Below, in pieces: positions 21,456 to 27,264 of a stretch of 64,000 nucleotides of DNA. The notes below the pieces were generated by a model. That model did not search any database. It saw only the letters and a list, made by a program, of their open reading frames with translations, and had not been told where the DNA came from. This DNA is from Hyalangium gracile (lineage in GTDB: Bacteria; Myxococcota; Myxococcia; Myxococcales; Myxococcaceae). The stretch lies in the NCBI RefSeq assembly GCF_020103725.1, contig NZ_JAHXBG010000009.1, positions 186,001 through 250,000 on the forward strand. The letters are read 5' to 3'. Made by a program: the position numbers and the translations under genes. Numbering within the stretch: the first letter of the stretch is position 1; the number at the start of each line of letters is the position of its first letter.

Positions 21456-23204
21456 ATGGCTCATGCTGCGAAGCTGTCCCAGCACTGCCGCACCTCCCTG
21501 GCGCTCCCCTCGGCGCTCCTCGTCCTGGCCATGAGCCTCCTGCCAGCCTGTGCCACTCGCTCGGCTGGCTCGACGGCTCGCGAGTTCAGGCTCTCGGGTT
21601 ACGACTCGGCTGCGCATGTCACCCGAGATTCCTCATCCGATGAGTCCCAGCGCCTTCCTGTCCCCTCGTGGAAGGCTGACACCGCGACACTGGAGCGAGC
21701 ACGACGCGCGGAAACAGAACACGCGGTGCAAACGCTCTGGACGGTGGTGAGGGCCACGGACTCTCCCGGTGCCAGATGGGAGTTCCGCTTCTGGTCTCAT
21801 GCTGGCGCCCTCACGCTCCTCTCCCTGCGACTCATCGAGGAAGGCGATGGGCAGGCGGTCCCCGTGAGCCGAGGGGCGTTCCTCCAGCGCCTCGAACGAG
21901 AGTTCCCCACTCTGCTGGGGACCCGACCGCGAGAACTCACCCTCTCCCTTGAGAGGCAGGAGAAACGTTGGAGCGTGGATCTCGACACGTCCTCACGCGA
22001 CTCTCCGCCCGCCTACGCGAGGACGCTCCCCTCCACTCGCGCTGGCACCTCCGATGAAGAGTACCGACAGGCACTGGACATGGCGCGACGCGTCACGAGG
22101 CTGCTGGGCGTGTCTCGCGATGGCAGTTCTCGCCTGGTGGTGCGGTTGATGCTGGAGGACCAGCGGCTCGTGGGCTGGGAGCCGGGAGAACTGGACTCCT
22201 CGGGCGATGGCCCCCTCCTCCACCCTGGCGAGGAAGCAGTGACCACGGTCCTCGGAGCCTTGCTGCCCTTCATGCGCGGAATGGGCGAACGCTCGGTGGC
22301 CCTCACGCTGCACGGCAGGCACAGGCACGGAGACGCCCAGCCTCGCTGGCAGGTGGTGGAAGCTCGCACGCTGGAGCCACCGCCACCGCCCATGGAGGTG
22401 GCGGACTTCCACCAGGAGTACCGCGCACTGCACGAGCACATCCTCGTCGAGTTCCAGGATCAGTCGCGCCAATACGCGGTGCTCGCGGCGGGCTTCACCC
22501 TGGAGCAGATCGCCTACGCCGTCGTGGGCGGCCTGCTGATCAAGCGCGCTCTGGTGCTCATCGAAGTGGCGGCCCCCACCATCACCTCCGTCCTGGCGCG
22601 GGGCGGCAAAGGCGCGGTGAGCTGGTTCCGTACCGTGCTGGTGCGTGCGGCTCCCGAGGAGCGTGTGCTCCTCCAACAGTTGTGGATGAAGGTGGAGACG
22701 CAGGGGCTCAACTCACTCACGGTGGCGGAGAGGCAGCAGTTCGGTGCCCTCATGAGCCGCCTGGAGAGAGTGTTGAGCACGCCTCTGGACAACTATGCCA
22801 AGGACAGACTCCGCGAGTGGGCACGCCAGGAGTACTTCACTCTGTACAATCCTCAGTTCGCCAGGCTGCTGGGAACCCAGGAAATGAAGTTCTACCAGGT
22901 GCATCACCTCCATCCGATGGAGTATGCCCACCTCTTCCCGAAGCTGGATATCAACGGCGGATTCAACCTCACGGCCGTCCACGTGGATGTTCACCGCAGC
23001 ATCAGTGCTGTCTGGCGCTCACTTGGAGGAGCCTCGGAACGGATGAAACCTCAGGACGTCGAGCGGGCAGTGGAGATCATCCACCGCCATTACCACCGCT
23101 GGTTCGGGAAGCGCTTCGATCCAAGAGAGGCCTCGGCTCTGGCCAACGCCAAGAATGCTGCGCTGGAAGAGATGGCTGCACTCAAAGCATCACTGACTCC
23201 ATGA
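21456..23204 (+). CDS. Lipoprotein with C-terminal His-rich nuclease-like domain, candidate toxin
   Basis: A 582-aa predicted lipoprotein. A signal peptide with lipobox LLPAC puts the lipidated Cys at 32. Residues ~40-330 have no recognised domain. A hydrophobic, membrane-like section spans about 335-395 (LEQIAYAVVGGLLIKRALVL). The C-terminal domain has VHHLHPMEYAHLF (H483, H484, H486) and VHVDVHRSI (H509, H513). That spacing (HH..HP.E..N..NL..VH..VH..I...W) recalls HNH/AHH-type nuclease toxins and, loosely, the DUF2380 lipoproteins of myxobacteria. A SUKH-like gene follows 18 nt later. A lipoprotein leader joined to a C-terminal toxin domain with a downstream partner is the layout of SitA outer-membrane-exchange toxins. 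The toxin role is inference. Confidence 0.72.
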   Translation: MAHAAKLSQHCRTSLALPSALLVLAMSLLPACATRSAGSTAREFRLSGYDSAAHVTRDSSSDESQRLPVPSWKADTATLERARRAETEHAVQTLWTVVRATDSPGARWEFRFWSHAGALTLLSLRLIEEGDGQAVPVSRGAFLQRLEREFPTLLGTRPRELTLSLERQEKRWSVDLDTSSRDSPPAYARTLPSTRAGTSDEEYRQALDMARRVTRLLGVSRDGSSRLVVRLMLEDQRLVGWEPGELDSSGDGPLLHPGEEAVTTVLGALLPFMRGMGERSVALTLHGRHRHGDAQPRWQVVEARTLEPPPPPMEVADFHQEYRALHEHILVEFQDQSRQYAVLAAGFTLEQIAYAVVGGLLIKRALVLIEVAAPTITSVLARGGKGAVSWFRTVLVRAAPEERVLLQQLWMKVETQGLNSLTVAERQQFGALMSRLERVLSTPLDNYAKDRLREWARQEYFTLYNPQFARLLGTQEMKFYQVHHLHPMEYAHLFPKLDINGGFNLTAVHVDVHRSISAVWRSLGGASERMKPQDVERAVEIIHRHYHRWFGKRFDPREASALANAKNAALEEMAALKASLTP

Positions 23205-23222
23205 GCTGAGAGACAAGGCTGC

Positions 23223-23870
23223 ATGCCTGATACGGCCCCGCTTCCAGGATTCGACCGGCTCGTCGGCATCTGCCAGCGCCACGCCCTCGCCTTGAGCCTC
23301 TCTCCCCCGCTCTCAACCGCGCCCAAAGCTGGAGAGCTGCTCTTCGGCGAGCCTGTGGACCCTCAGCTGGCAGCCGTCTACTCGCGCCTGGGCGCCGCTG
23401 AACTCGGTCCACTCACTCTCTACCGACCCGGCTCTGAATGGATGGATCTCGTTCCGTGGAATGAGCGGCTGAGGGAAGATGGAGCGGAGCCCTTTCGCTC
23501 CTGTCTCGTCTTCGGAGAGAAGACGGGCTTCTCCTATTACCTCGGCACCGTTCCCACCCTGGCCAACGCCCACGCGCTCCAACCGGTCGTCTACATCGAC
23601 GGTCACGAAGCTCCGTTTGCCATCCCCGTCGCCTCCAGCGTCGACCGCTTCTTCGACACCTACTCCCGTTACCTGGAGCGGATGGCCGTCGACCTCGAGT
23701 ACGTCCATACGGGCTCTCCCGCCCTGCTCTTCCCCTGGAGCACGCCCGAACTCGTCGCCTCGGACGCTCCCCTGATCGCTCAGGTGCGCGCCGGCCGCTT
23801 CGATTTCCTGGCCCATGGCGCCCCGGGCGCACTCGAGTGGCTCGAGCAGTTGCGGCACACGCTCCCCTAG
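23223..23870 (+). CDS. SUKH (SMI1/KNR4)-like protein, candidate immunity protein
   Basis: A 215-aa soluble protein without signal peptide. The centre has alternating strands (CLVFGEKTGFSYYLGTV, PVVYIDGHEAPFAIPV) and then ASSVDRFFDTYSRYLE at 138-153. That resembles the closing (I/V)ASSFxxFL helix of SMI1/KNR4 (SUKH) immunity proteins. SUKH proteins bind and neutralise nuclease-type toxins. The gene follows the lipoprotein gene by 18 nt in the same direction and is probably co-transcribed. The family assignment is by pattern only and moderate; the pairing is the stronger argument. Confidence 0.62.
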   Translation: MPDTAPLPGFDRLVGICQRHALALSLSPPLSTAPKAGELLFGEPVDPQLAAVYSRLGAAELGPLTLYRPGSEWMDLVPWNERLREDGAEPFRSCLVFGEKTGFSYYLGTVPTLANAHALQPVVYIDGHEAPFAIPVASSVDRFFDTYSRYLERMAVDLEYVHTGSPALLFPWSTPELVASDAPLIAQVRAGRFDFLAHGAPGALEWLEQLRHTLP

Positions 23871-24158
23871 AAGCCAGGCGTCCCTCTACCCAGGGAAGCA
23901 CACGTCTTCCCACTTTCTCCGCCTCACACTCCCAGCGCGGGCCTCAGCTCCGTCGGCCCCTGGCGGGGTCAGCCGCTCCAGGTCCTTTCTTGCGGCCTGG
24001 GAAACGAGCGCCAACCTGCCGATTCATTTGACTTTTTGTCCCCGGAGAAGAATGGATGCGGCGCTCTGTTCGAGCCTCGGGTCCCGATGGACCCCGTGAC
24101 ACAACCAGCACGTGGCATTTCCACGCAAGGCCGGTGTTCTGCTGGTTCCCTCTCACCG

Positions 24159-24872
24159 ATGCAGGCTTCCATGACGTCCCTCCTTCTCCTCGTCCAGGCT
24201 GGCCAGCCCGAGCTCGGCTGGCTGAGCCGCAAGCTGCTCGGCGTCACTCTCTCCAGCGCGGAGTGGGTGCTGTGGCTGCTCGTCACCCTGTCCGTGCTCT
24301 CCATCGCGCTCATGCTCGAGCGCGCCGTCTACTTCGCCACCCACCGGCTCAGTGACTCGGAGGCCCTGGCCGTCAAGCTGGCCCGCGGCGAGTTCGACGC
24401 CGTGCGCGCCGCCATCCAGGGCAAGAAGGGCATGGAGGCCGCCGTCATCCGCGAGGGCCTCGACTCCACCGCCCAGGGCCCCGACACCGTCGAGCAGGTG
24501 ATCGCCTCCACCGTCTCCCGCGAGCGCCCCCAGTACGAGCGCTACCTGTCCTTCCTGGGCACCCTGGGCAACAACGCGCCGTTCATCGGCCTGTTCGGCA
24601 CGGTGCTCGGCATCATCAAGGCGTTCAACGACCTGGGCGCCACCAACGTCAAGGGCGCCGCCATCCAGCAGACCGTGATGGCCGGCATCTCCGAGGCGCT
24701 CGTCGCCACCGCCGTGGGCCTGGCCGTGGCCATCCCCGCCGTGGTCGCCTTCAACGTCTTCAACCGCCAGCTCAAGACGCTCACCAGCCGCACCAATGCC
24801 CTGGGCTTCGCCCTGGTGGGCAGCCTGCGCGCCGAGGGCCGCAAGACCGCCACCTCCGCGGAGGGGCGCTAG
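24159..24872 (+). CDS. exbB: MotA/TolQ/ExbB proton channel family protein
   Basis: A 237-aa inner-membrane protein with three hydrophobic helices. The first (EWVLWLLVTLSVLSIALML) follows a short N-terminus. The pair near the C-terminus includes the conserved TolQ/ExbB stretch LGTLGNNAPFIGLFGTVLGI and ISEALVATAVGLAVAIPAVV. It forms the proton channel with ExbD to energise TonB. ATG 24159 is chosen; ATG 24171 is equally possible and neither has a strong ribosome binding site. exbD follows after 3 nt. Confidence 0.92.
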   Translation: MQASMTSLLLLVQAGQPELGWLSRKLLGVTLSSAEWVLWLLVTLSVLSIALMLERAVYFATHRLSDSEALAVKLARGEFDAVRAAIQGKKGMEAAVIREGLDSTAQGPDTVEQVIASTVSRERPQYERYLSFLGTLGNNAPFIGLFGTVLGIIKAFNDLGATNVKGAAIQQTVMAGISEALVATAVGLAVAIPAVVAFNVFNRQLKTLTSRTNALGFALVGSLRAEGRKTATSAEGR

Positions 24873-24875
24873 GCC

Positions 24876-25319
24876 ATGGCCGGCGGTGCGCAGCAGGACA
24901 ACGAAGAGGAAATCACCGGCATCAACGTCACGCCCCTGGTGGACATCGTGCTGGTGCTCCTCATCATCTTCATGGTGACGGCCAACTTCATCGTCCGCGA
25001 GACGGTGGAGGTGGACCTGCCCCGCGCCGCCAACGGCGGCGAGACGGTGCAGGGGCTCGTCAACGTCGTCCTCGACAAGGACGGCAAGCTCTACTTCGAC
25101 GGCACCGAGGTGCCCGAGGACGAGCTGAATCGCAAGGTGGCCGAGGCGGTGGCCAAGGACAAGGACACCCGCGCCATCATCAGCGCCGACCAGAGCCTGC
25201 CGTACGGCCGGGTGATGCACCTCATCGACGTGGTGAAGGGACAGGGCATCGCCAAGTTCGCCCTCAACATCCAGAAGGATGCCGCGCCCACACCCGCGGC
25301 GGCTCCCGCGAGTCCCTGA
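24876..25319 (+). CDS. exbD: ExbD/TolR biopolymer transport protein
   Basis: A 147-aa protein with a short cytoplasmic N-terminus, one membrane helix (INVTPLVDIVLVLLIIFMV) and a periplasmic domain. The essential proton-carrying Asp of the family is D23 in TPLVDIVLVLL. The periplasmic part (KDGKLYFDGTEVP, DQSLPYGRVMHLIDVVK) matches ExbD. It sits between exbB and tonB with gaps of 3 and 12 nt, which indicates one operon. Confidence 0.94.
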   Translation: MAGGAQQDNEEEITGINVTPLVDIVLVLLIIFMVTANFIVRETVEVDLPRAANGGETVQGLVNVVLDKDGKLYFDGTEVPEDELNRKVAEAVAKDKDTRAIISADQSLPYGRVMHLIDVVKGQGIAKFALNIQKDAAPTPAAAPASP

Positions 25320-25331
25320 GGCGAGGCGCCC

Positions 25332-26120
25332 ATGAGCCAGGCGATTCTCGACAACCCGCTGCCTCCACGCCGCTCGTCGCAGTGGGCCCTCGTGTTCGTG
25401 CTCGTCTCGCTGGCGCTGCACGGCGTGGGCCTGTTCGCGCTCAGCCGCATGAAGGACCGCGCCATCCACGAGGCGCAGAAGCCGGTGGAGCTCGTCATGG
25501 TGGAGGTGCAGAAGCCTCCGCCTCCGCCCCCTCCCCCCAAGGAGGAGCCCAAGCCCCCCGAGCCTCCCAAGGCCAGGCCCCCGCCCAAGCCGCCCCCCGT
25601 GAAGGTGGCCCAGGCGGAGAAGCCGCCCCCGCCTCCGCCGGAGCAGGCCCCGCCTCCGCCCAACGAGCCGCCCCCCGAGCCCACCAAGCCGGTGCCGCTC
25701 GTGGTGGGCATCTCCATGTCCTCCACCACCGCCGCCGGCGGCTTCGCCGCGCCCGTGGGCAACACCGCCTACGGCAAGGTGGACAGCAAGGCCAAGGCCC
25801 CCAGCGAGGTGAAGGAGTACGCGGCGCCCAAGTACACCCCCATCTACCAGGTGGACTCCGAGCCCCAGGTCGCCTCCGAGGTGAAGATCCCCTACCCCGA
25901 GGAGGCCCGGCGCGCCGGCATCGAGGGCACCGTCACGCTCTCCATCACCATCGATCCCGAGGGCAAGGTGGTGGCCGCGAAGATCATCTCCGGCCCCGGC
26001 TACGGACTGAACGAGGCGGCGCGCGACGCCATCAAGCGCTTCCGCTTCAAGCCCGCCATCAAGGGCGGAGAGGCCGTCTCCACGGAGATGAAGTACGCCT
26101 ACACCTTCCTGCTGGACTAG
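25332..26120 (+). CDS. tonB: TonB energy-transducing protein
   Basis: A 262-aa protein. One membrane helix (about 17-36, WALVFVLVSLALHGVGLFAL) is followed by a Pro/Lys-rich periplasmic spacer (residues ~58-120, with PPPPPPPPKEEPKPPEPPK). The C-terminal TonB domain carries IPYPEEARRAGIEGTVTLSI and FRFKPAIKGGE. It delivers the ExbB/ExbD proton energy to outer-membrane receptors. Its TAG stop shares bases with the stop of the convergent marR gene (CTAG). Confidence 0.93.
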   Translation: MSQAILDNPLPPRRSSQWALVFVLVSLALHGVGLFALSRMKDRAIHEAQKPVELVMVEVQKPPPPPPPPKEEPKPPEPPKARPPPKPPPVKVAQAEKPPPPPPEQAPPPPNEPPPEPTKPVPLVVGISMSSTTAAGGFAAPVGNTAYGKVDSKAKAPSEVKEYAAPKYTPIYQVDSEPQVASEVKIPYPEEARRAGIEGTVTLSITIDPEGKVVAAKIISGPGYGLNEAARDAIKRFRFKPAIKGGEAVSTEMKYAYTFLLD

Positions 26121-26811: not shown

Positions 26812-27264
26812 TCAGCAGGCGATGTCGAGGCAGGAGGCGCCCTTCGGCGCGCAGACGCCGCAGCTCGGGTTGCAGCACCAGGTGCCCGCGCCGCAGCTGT
26901 TGCCACCGCAGGAGCCGCCCAGCTGCTGCTCCTCCGGGGGCAGCGGCTTCATGGCCGCCGCCTCGGGCTGCTGCGGCTGCTGCGCCACCTCGCACATCAC
27001 GTCCAGACATGAGGCGCCCTTCGGGGCGCAGACGCCACAGCTCGCGTTGCAGCAGTAGGTGCCCTTGCCACAGGTGTTGCTGCCGCAGGGCACGCCGATG
27101 ACGTTCTCGTCCGCCTCCGCTCCGCCACCGTTGTGGAGGCCGGCGCCAGCAACGGGGTCGACGTTCGCATGCTGAGCCTGCGTGTCGGTGGACTCCTCCA
27201 CCGTGCCGCCGCACGCCGAGGCCATCAGGGCCAACACCGCGACTGCCATCCAACGAAGCTTCAT
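26812..27264 (-). CDS. Cys-rich lipoprotein with two CCN-SCGVCAPKGASC repeats
   Basis: A 150-aa lipoprotein. The signal peptide (KLRWMAVAVLALMASAC) has a lipobox and the lipidated Cys at 18. The mature part holds two near-identical repeats, each with CG.N.CG.GT.CC, then N.SCGVCAPKGASCLD and a final Cys. The repeats are separated by a Pro/Gln/Ala-rich linker. The Cys spacing suggests a disulfide-bonded knot. GGGAG lies 5 nt before the ATG. Many myxobacterial lipoproteins carry similar modules; the function is unknown. Confidence 0.8.
   Translation of the reverse strand: MKLRWMAVAVLALMASACGGTVEESTDTQAQHANVDPVAGAGLHNGGGAEADENVIGVPCGSNTCGKGTYCCNASCGVCAPKGASCLDVMCEVAQQPQQPEAAAMKPLPPEEQQLGGSCGGNSCGAGTWCCNPSCGVCAPKGASCLDIAC

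What the first reader, a model, noticed from the sequence alone, without database searches (positions are those of the whole stretch)
21456..23870. Lipoprotein with His-rich nuclease-like C-terminus plus SUKH-like partner: candidate exchange toxin
The 582-aa protein has a lipobox (Cys 32), a hydrophobic middle, and a C-terminal domain with HH.HP.E (483-489), N500, and VH..VH (508-513), an HNH/AHH-like pattern. A SUKH-like gene follows by 18 nt. SitA toxins of Myxococcus are lipoproteins that spread by TraA/B outer-membrane exchange and are each followed by an immunity gene. The architecture fits, but this protein is much longer and its domain differs from the described DUF2380-type one.
Basis: partly seen in the sequence, partly recalled or inferred. 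Interest (0 to 1): 0.82.

Follow-up and report, generated by a model that had tools for sequence, protein, structure and literature searches.

The report
Myxobacterial lipoprotein toxin and its antidote
This gene pair in a social soil bacterium looks like a membrane-anchored DNA-cutting toxin with its own antidote, of the sort these bacteria pass to neighbours to tell kin from strangers, and it may form a family not yet described.

Summary
In detail: a 582-aa lipoprotein (21456-23204) and, 18 nt on, a 215-aa partner. Neither matches a curated family over cut-off. Relatives show what they are. The lipobox Cys, H483, H484, P487, N500, H513 and W520 are invariant in 40 full-length relatives. The C-terminal profile matches the SitA6/DUF2380 nuclease (hhalign 43.9; at most 23.2 in 400 shuffles). 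The partner's model has a SUKH fold (Z 12.1). 52 of 53 nuclease-domain sequences have the partner downstream; the 53rd ends an RHS protein and has a divergent partner. At one shared site, G058 and G060 are mostly 0.80-0.94 identical in DNA before, 0.49-0.65 over the nuclease and most of the partner, and 0.91-0.99 beyond: a swapped toxin-immunity cassette. The genome encodes TraA and TraB; all 38 genomes found with the family carry SitA6. The escort domain matches neither SitA5 nor SitA6, and no family member was found in a Myxococcus xanthus-like genome. Best reading: a further SitA-like family of exchange toxins (new escort, SitA6-type nuclease, SUKH immunity). Toxicity, DNA cutting and delivery are inferred. 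SitA4 or SitA7 is not excluded: their sequences were not at hand.

The parts
21456..23204 (+). 582-aa lipoprotein, proposed toxin
   Evidence: 40 full-length relatives; own-genome paralogs
21540..21551 (+). lipobox LPAC, residues 29-32; Cys32 is the predicted lipidated residue
   Evidence: Cys in 40 of 40; +2 residue A/T/V, never K
21681..22373 (+). proposed escort domain, residues 76-306, two alpha-beta-beta-alpha-beta-beta halves
   Evidence: AF2 model, block means of pLDDT 80 or more between residues 81 and 310; halves weakly alike, hhalign 21 %, score 24.5 against max 18.5 in 100 shuffles; no match to SitA5 or SitA6
22410..22670 (+). helical, partly hydrophobic middle, residues 319-405; roughly its own co-variation block
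22839..23195 (+). C-terminal beta-beta-alpha (HNH/EndoVII-like) nuclease domain, residues 462-580
22902..22907 (+). H483-H484, proposed catalytic/metal histidines
   Evidence: invariant in 40 of 40
22953..22955 (+). N500
   Evidence: invariant in 40 of 40
22992..22994 (+). H513, in the alpha helix of the beta-beta-alpha unit
   Evidence: invariant in 40 of 40; model helix 510-521
23223..23870 (+). 215-aa SUKH-fold partner, proposed immunity protein; no signal peptide seen in its N-terminus

Best explanation
The pair is a polymorphic toxin-immunity cassette of the SitAI kind. Proposed course: the lipoprotein is lipidated at Cys32 and sorted to the outer membrane (inferred from a sequence rule). 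It passes to a neighbour when both cells carry compatible TraA and their outer membranes exchange content (inferred). The N-terminal domain (76-306) and the helical middle act as escort and entry parts that bring the C-terminus into the recipient's cytoplasm (inferred by analogy with SitA). The beta-beta-alpha nuclease (HH..P, N500, H513), a distant relative of the SitA6/DUF2380 DNase, then cuts DNA (homology shown, activity inferred). Clonemates survive because the SUKH-fold partner in their cytoplasm binds and blocks the nuclease (fold of the model, operon linkage and cassette swap shown; binding inferred). The combination of escort, nuclease and immunity marks a SitA-like family apart from SitA5 and SitA6.
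For: Lipobox Cys and nuclease residues invariant in 40 relatives. Nuclease profile against SitA6/DUF2380: hhalign score 43.9; max 23.2 in 400 column shuffles, 12.3 against the reversed profile. The nuclease HMM also hits the SitA6 protein in 9 of 10 SitA6 loci (not L117), E 5.6e-5 to 0.053 in a small custom set. A DUF2380 protein, pMF1.20, cuts DNA in vitro and is inhibited by its neighbour pMF1.19 (PMC6091211, passages). Partner model pLDDT 93; SUKH fold: 2icg and YobK Z 12.1, Knr4 Z 11.4. 40 of 40 full-length toxins have a partner within 400 nt; 52 of 53 distinct nuclease-domain sequences have one downstream; 18 of 75 partners have no nuclease upstream. Cassette swap: G058 against G060, DNA identity per 150 nt 0.80-0.94 from -500 to 1150, 0.49-0.65 from 1300 to 2200, then 0.82 and 0.91-0.99 for over 3 kb. 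In 84 close pairs the partner tracks the nuclease (Spearman 0.90; partial on escort 0.86) more than the escort (partial 0.40). RHS protein with the same nuclease core and a partner homolog. Paralogs in the own genome: two of full length (C2, C1), two broken or partial (C13, C44). TraA 1123 bits, TraB 933 bits to the NCBIfam models. All 38 family-bearing genomes carry SitA6 and 37 of 38 a TraA hit; the other, G065, is a draft of about 800 contigs.
Against: No curated family matches toxin or partner over cut-off. Over all 780 pairs of 40, partner identity tracks the escort (partial 0.64) and not the nuclease (0.06); this reverses in close pairs, and saturation is my explanation, not a test. Of five genome pairs compared along the locus, the two with G058 show the dip over nuclease and partner; the other three do not. 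No structural match for the whole toxin model, and the nuclease domain was not folded alone. No sitB-like gene precedes it (the upstream gene is on the other strand). Ten of the 38 genomes have only short escort-only lipoproteins, without nuclease or partner where I looked, so the escort domain can have another role. Seven of 40 have Ala at +7, which the outer-membrane rule quoted in PMC5562445 speaks against. Toxicity, activity, export and transfer are untested.
Confidence: 0.8

Rival explanations
1. It is one of the published families under another name (SitA4 or SitA7, both with non-modular nuclease domains), so nothing new.
For: SitA4, SitA6 and SitA7 have one toxin type each, as here (PMC8546572, passages).
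Against: The alleles that represent the six families were cloned from M. fulvus HW-1 and M. xanthus DZ2 (PMC8546572, passages). G117, with protein S 100 % identical to that of M. xanthus, is one of 13 of the 27 genomes of its genus g19 with no toxin hit and no partner hit, while 38 genomes have the family. The toxin searches scored only the best 7-9 first-look candidates per genome, so absence is not absolute; the partner search scored up to 21. SitA4 alleles tested are reported as AHH (PF14412); AHH is not found in the window protein nor among the 25 of 29 weak families shown for the 40 members, and AHH profiles do not align.
Confidence: 0.12
2. A lipoprotein toxin-immunity pair that is not delivered by TraAB exchange but by another contact-dependent or vesicle route.
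For: Delivery was not tested; the same nuclease core also ends an RHS protein, so the nuclease is not bound to one route.
Against: All 38 genomes with the family (195 genomes of the phylum) are SitA6-positive, 37 with a TraA hit. In one search two SitA6-negative genomes (G001, G004) gave weak hits with stops inside, which one search did not list. The distribution is also phylogenetic, so this is not proof.
Confidence: 0.1
3. The partner recognises the escort domain rather than the nuclease.
For: Over all pairs the partner's identity tracks the escort best.
Against: Escort without nuclease mostly goes without partner (14 of 16); nuclease without this escort (RHS) has a partner homolog; in close pairs the partner follows the nuclease and differs together with it at one site.
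Confidence: 0.05
4. A house-keeping nuclease lipoprotein with an unrelated neighbour gene, not a toxin system.
For: No toxin-family model matches over cut-off.
Against: Patchy presence, several divergent copies per genome, broken toxins beside intact partners, cassette swapping.
Confidence: 0.03

Closest known systems
SitA6 / DUF2380 (PF09533, TIGR02269) with double-CXXCG immunity (PF09535)
   Same: Lipoprotein, multi-copy, TraA-bearing genomes, related HH..P / VH..I nuclease core
   Different: The SitA6 proteins fetched are mostly 216-248 aa, have another N-terminus and, by PMC12077181, a double-CXXCG immunity; here about 580 aa, a two-part escort domain and a SUKH-fold partner
SitA1 with SUKH-type SitI1 (PMC5562445)
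   Same: Long lipoprotein with a C-terminal nuclease described with a WHH motif, followed by a gene with SUKH homology (passages)
   Different: SitA1 is preceded by sitB; its sequence was not compared here
SitA5 (NF050093 escort) with AHH nuclease and Imm11
   Same: Lipoprotein family present in this very genome (L133 scores 300 bits)
   Different: No escort similarity, no AHH similarity
RHS polymorphic toxins with HNH/EndoVII tips and Imm-SUKH (Zhang 2012, PMC3482391)
   Same: Same nuclease core and a partner homolog at the end of an RHS protein in G073; that paper lists HNH-fold toxins, Tox-LHH among them, with Imm-SUKH (passages)
   Different: RHS shell instead of a lipoprotein escort; relation to Tox-LHH not tested beyond the Pfam scans

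Membership tests
SitA toxins (outer-membrane-exchange lipoproteins) | Lipoprotein signal with outer-membrane sorting residues | tested here: met
   Cys at the lipobox in 40 of 40; no Lys at +2; Ala at +7 in 7 of 40, Gly in this protein; rule from PMC5562445
SitA toxins (outer-membrane-exchange lipoproteins) | Immunity gene directly downstream | tested here: met
   Partner gene beside 40 of 40 full-length toxins and below 52 of 53 nuclease sequences; that it gives immunity is inferred
SitA toxins (outer-membrane-exchange lipoproteins) | C-terminal nuclease domain | tested here: met
   By homology to SitA6/DUF2380; activity not testable here
SitA toxins (outer-membrane-exchange lipoproteins) | traAB in the same genome | tested here: met
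   L170: TraA 1123 bits (cut-off 750), TraB 932.8 bits (cut-off 700)
SitA toxins (outer-membrane-exchange lipoproteins) | TraAB-dependent transfer and killing | not testable with these tools
   Needs strains
SitA5 | SitA5 escort domain (NF050093) | tested here: not met
   0 of 40 members match at E up to 1 (all 10 weak families shown); hhalign to six own SitA5 proteins no match
SitA6 | TIGR02269 / PF09533 over cut-off and the SitA6 N-terminus | tested here: not met
   TIGR02269 in 0 of 40; PF09533 not in the window protein nor among the 25 of 29 weak families shown for the 40; N-terminus no match; nuclease core alone is related
SitA1/2, SitA3, SitA4, SitA7 | Their escort domains | not tested
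   No reference sequences at hand; indirect: no toxin or partner hit in an M. xanthus-like genome
AHH nuclease (PF14412) | AHH profile | tested here: not met
   Not in the window protein at E up to 5; profile comparison with 13 own AHH proteins 0.4 %
SUKH superfamily (partner) | SUKH fold | tested here: met
   AF2 model; Foldseek probability 1.00 to 2icg and Knr4, best E 1.2e-3; Z 12.1, 146 residues, rmsd 3.4 to 2icg
SUKH superfamily (partner) | Match to a curated SUKH sequence profile | tested here: not met
   1 of 55 partners reaches SMI1_KNR4 at E 0.056

The most novel reading that the evidence does not exclude
An undescribed SitA family ('SitA8-like'): a new two-part escort domain carries a SitA6-type nuclease with SUKH immunity, and nuclease plus immunity are exchanged as a cassette within the same chromosomal site and shared with RHS toxins. 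Half of its escort domain recurs in yet another lipoprotein family with a pre-toxin TG domain, which would make it a more widely used entry module.
Probability: 0.7. Interest if true: 0.7.

Novelty: new variant of a known kind. Interest (0 to 1): 0.62.

Why it matters
Six SitA families are described as molecular barcodes by which myxobacteria tell kin from non-kin (PMC8546572), and how each escort domain gets a nuclease into the cytoplasm is open. A further family with its own escort domain gives a new handle on that entry step. The in-place difference over nuclease plus partner between two genomes shows how a strain could change its barcode at one locus by recombination. The shared nuclease core ties SitA6, this family and an RHS toxin to one pool.

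Tried and rejected
Curated families for the single proteins: Pfam gave only DUF5623 and hemerythrin at E 0.05-0.2 for the whole protein, and about 0.003 plus DUF6587 at 0.25 for its last 184 residues, all below cut-off; NCBIfam and PADLOC gave nothing. I set hemerythrin aside because of the score and the HNH-like context. AHH as the nuclease type: not supported. A PA14 search for TraA found two unrelated lipoproteins; TraA was found beside an OmpA gene instead. A Paracoccus plasmid RHS hit matched the RHS shell, not the nuclease. No match of toxin or partner in plasmids, and none of the toxin in phages. One relative in genome contigs, on a contig of the same length as the one in G081.

Rows left out before counts: alignment A1 holds 40 of 57 non-redundant toxin ORFs (those over 530 aa), A2 55 of 61 partner ORFs (six with over-long or cut frames left out), A6 33 of the 40 (near-duplicates left out). 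Two weak hits (G001, G004) were dropped from the 39 genomes. Ten of the 38 genomes (G055, G056, G094, G095, G098, G099, G104, G105, G109, G111) hold escort-only proteins. Genome searches score only part of the first-look candidates, so copy numbers per genome are lower bounds. E-values from my own HMM runs are for small custom sets.
Full report
What is there. The window carries a 582-aa ORF (21456-23204) and, 18 nt later, a 215-aa ORF on the same strand. The first has a signal peptide ending in the lipobox LPAC with Cys32. The gene upstream runs on the other strand, so there is no sitB-like gene in front; downstream follow ExbB-, ExbD- and TonB-like genes (these labels are my reading of the sequence). 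Single-protein scans gave no curated family over cut-off.

Relatives. The own genome has further copies of the toxin on contigs C2 (55 %), C13 (61 %), C1 (35 %) and C44 (41 %, partial), and seven partner copies in all, two of them (C16, C8) with no toxin match beside them. The C13 toxin lacks residues 403-506 and changes frame, while its partner reads through. Across 145 genomes of the order, 39 had toxin hits and 31 partner hits. From fetched loci I took 57 non-redundant toxin ORFs (broken and escort-only ones included) and 61 partner ORFs. In 40 full-length toxins the lipobox Cys, H483, H484, P487, N500, H513 and W520 are invariant. Members of both alignments match Pfam and NCBIfam families no better than E 0.0055 in the lists shown (in one search, 25 of 29 weak families are shown).

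Structure. The toxin model (pLDDT 85, pTM 0.80) shows a disordered linker, a domain of two alpha-beta-beta-alpha-beta-beta halves (76-306), helices (319-477) and a beta-beta-alpha unit (strands 480-484 and 505-509, helix 510-521) around HH, N500 and H513. This is the arrangement of HNH/EndoVII nucleases (established knowledge; not confirmed by a fold match). The two escort halves are weakly alike (21 %, score 24.5 against a maximum of 18.5 in 100 shuffles). The whole model had no useful PDB match. The partner model (pLDDT 93) has a SUKH fold: 2icg and YobK Z 12.1, Knr4 Z 11.4.

The nuclease. The C-terminal profile (residues 462-556, 40 sequences) aligns with a SitA6/DUF2380 profile (10 sequences) at 91 %, with HH..P and VH..I in register. 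Score 43.9 compares with at most 20.6 and 23.2 in two sets of 200 column shuffles and 12.3 for the reversed profile. My nuclease HMM also finds the SitA6 protein in 9 of 10 SitA6 loci (L117 is missed), E 5.6e-5 to 0.053 in a small set. AHH proteins of the same genome do not match, and the escort domain matches neither SitA6 nor SitA5 nor three further AHH lipoproteins. A DUF2380 protein, pMF1.20, cuts DNA in vitro and is bound and slowed by its neighbour pMF1.19 (PMC6091211, passages read).

Toxin and antidote. All 40 full-length toxins have a partner within 400 nt. Of 53 distinct nuclease-domain sequences 52 have a partner downstream; of 75 partner sequences 18 have no nuclease within 2.6 kb upstream. 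Of 85 escort sequences (62 after merging fragments) 16 have no nuclease after them, and 2 of these 16 have a partner; these 16 include escort-only proteins, fragments and members of the second family named below. The 53rd nuclease ends a 2121-aa RHS protein in G073 (RHS_repeat E 3e-85 on a 1418-aa piece) and is followed by a divergent partner homolog (E 1.4e-4). So the partner goes with the nuclease, whatever carries the nuclease.

Cassette swapping. In G058 and G060 the locus sits at the same site. DNA identity per 150 nt is 0.80-0.94 from about 500 nt upstream to 1150 nt into the toxin gene, 0.72 in the next step, 0.49-0.65 from 1300 to 2200 (C-terminal third of the toxin and most of the partner), then 0.82 and 0.91-0.99 for over 3 kb (further upstream G060 has no sequence). 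Of five genome pairs compared, G058-G067 shows the same dip, and the three pairs without G058 do not. At protein level the G058-G060 pair has escort 0.87, middle 0.96, nuclease 0.39, partner 0.44; tandem copies in one genome (L096) have escort 0.99, nuclease 0.77, partner 0.74. Among 84 pairs with over 50 % toxin identity, partner identity follows the nuclease (Spearman 0.90, partial 0.86) more than the escort (partial 0.40). These pairs are not independent. Against this, over all 780 pairs the partner follows the escort (partial 0.64, reached by 0 of 2000 permutations) and not the nuclease (0.06, reached by 397 of 2000); I think the short nuclease is saturated at that distance, but did not test it. 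Windows along the toxin fall roughly into three blocks, 76-285, 286-405 and 406-580. The window's own locus has a same-site counterpart in G081: six flanking genes differ by dS 0.25-0.43, toxin and partner by 0.94 and 1.15, the toxin's middle by 0.55, which fits allele replacement in place.

Delivery. The genome encodes TraA (707 aa, with the SCNCCP signature and a sorting-type tail) overlapping TraB (540 aa), at L170; NCBIfam scores 1123 and 933 bits, over cut-off. TraA hits occur in 63 of 145 genomes and SitA6 in 64. A profile search of 195 genomes of the phylum found the family in 38; all 38 have SitA6 and 37 have a TraA hit, G065 being a fragmented draft. This agrees with exchange delivery but follows phylogeny too. 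The lipobox context mostly fits outer-membrane sorting by the rule in PMC5562445: no Lys at +2 in 40 of 40, Ala at +7 in 7 of 40.

Known or new. SitA toxins form six families by escort domain; SitA4, 6 and 7 have a fixed toxin type; loci typically number 25-80 per genome (PMC8546572, passages). SitA6 is DUF2380 next to double-CXXCG immunity genes (PMC12077181, part 1 of 2 of its text read). None of 40 members matches the NCBIfam SitA5 or SitA6 models, while these models recognise an own-genome SitA5 protein and a SitA6 protein of G071. Sequences of SitA1/2, 3, 4 and 7 were not at hand. Indirectly: G117, with protein S identical to that of M. xanthus and an 89 % copy 1.4 kb away, has no toxin or partner hit; it is one of 13 of the 27 genomes of its genus without a toxin hit, and of the other 14 eight have only escort-only proteins. 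Only the best 7-9 candidates per genome were scored in the toxin searches. No paper in the held library contains 'SitA8'; the SitA papers listed speak of six families where I read them. I therefore call it a candidate further SitA family, not an established member.

Extension. The first half of the escort domain recurs (hhalign 96 %, P 1.3e-9) in another multi-copy lipoprotein family of G047 and G043. The member scanned has a pre-toxin TG domain (PF14449, over cut-off); the family has a different C-terminus and a different 267-273-aa downstream gene.

Shown: gene structure, conservation, profile homology of the nuclease, SUKH fold of the partner model, linkage, the same-site difference over nuclease and partner, traAB presence. 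Inferred: outer-membrane location, transfer, entry, DNA cutting, neutralisation.

Noticed in passing
L183, L184, L197, L198 (genomes G047, G043): A second multi-copy lipoprotein family shares escort half 1 and has a different C-terminus with a 267-273-aa gene downstream in L183 and L184; a pre-toxin TG domain in the member scanned; tandem in L198. Possibly another SitA-like family.
   Followed up: partly
L109-L112, L115, L051-L054 (genomes of g5 and g19): Short lipoproteins (279-331 aa) made of the escort domain alone, without nuclease or partner; possible ancestor, decoy or helper.
   Followed up: partly
L181 / L196 (G073:C8): RHS protein of 2121 aa ending in the same nuclease core with a partner homolog after it.
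   Followed up: yes
G106:C10:4058, G119:C65:2143, G116:C13:150487, G117:C9:5510, G118:C1:6221891, G083:C1:197672, G107:C4:523996, G100:C1:3724013: A second, shorter TraA-like protein (open frames 492-526 aa) 48-52 % identical to the N-terminal half of TraA.
   Followed up: no
own genome C8:358200 and C16:182740 (L025, L024); also L104, L106, L107, L190-L195: Partner genes without a nuclease of this family upstream, as expected of orphan immunity genes.
   Followed up: partly
window 24036-26120: ExbB-, ExbD- and TonB-like genes follow the pair, also in G081; SitA5 entry is reported to involve an ExbB homolog (PMC8546572, passages), but the nearness may be chance.
   Followed up: no
window 26812-27264 (-): 150-aa lipoprotein-like ORF with two Cys-rich repeats (CGSNTCGKGTYCCN...).
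   Followed up: no
own genome: At least 16 SitA6/DUF2380 and 15 AHH matches in this one genome.
   Followed up: no
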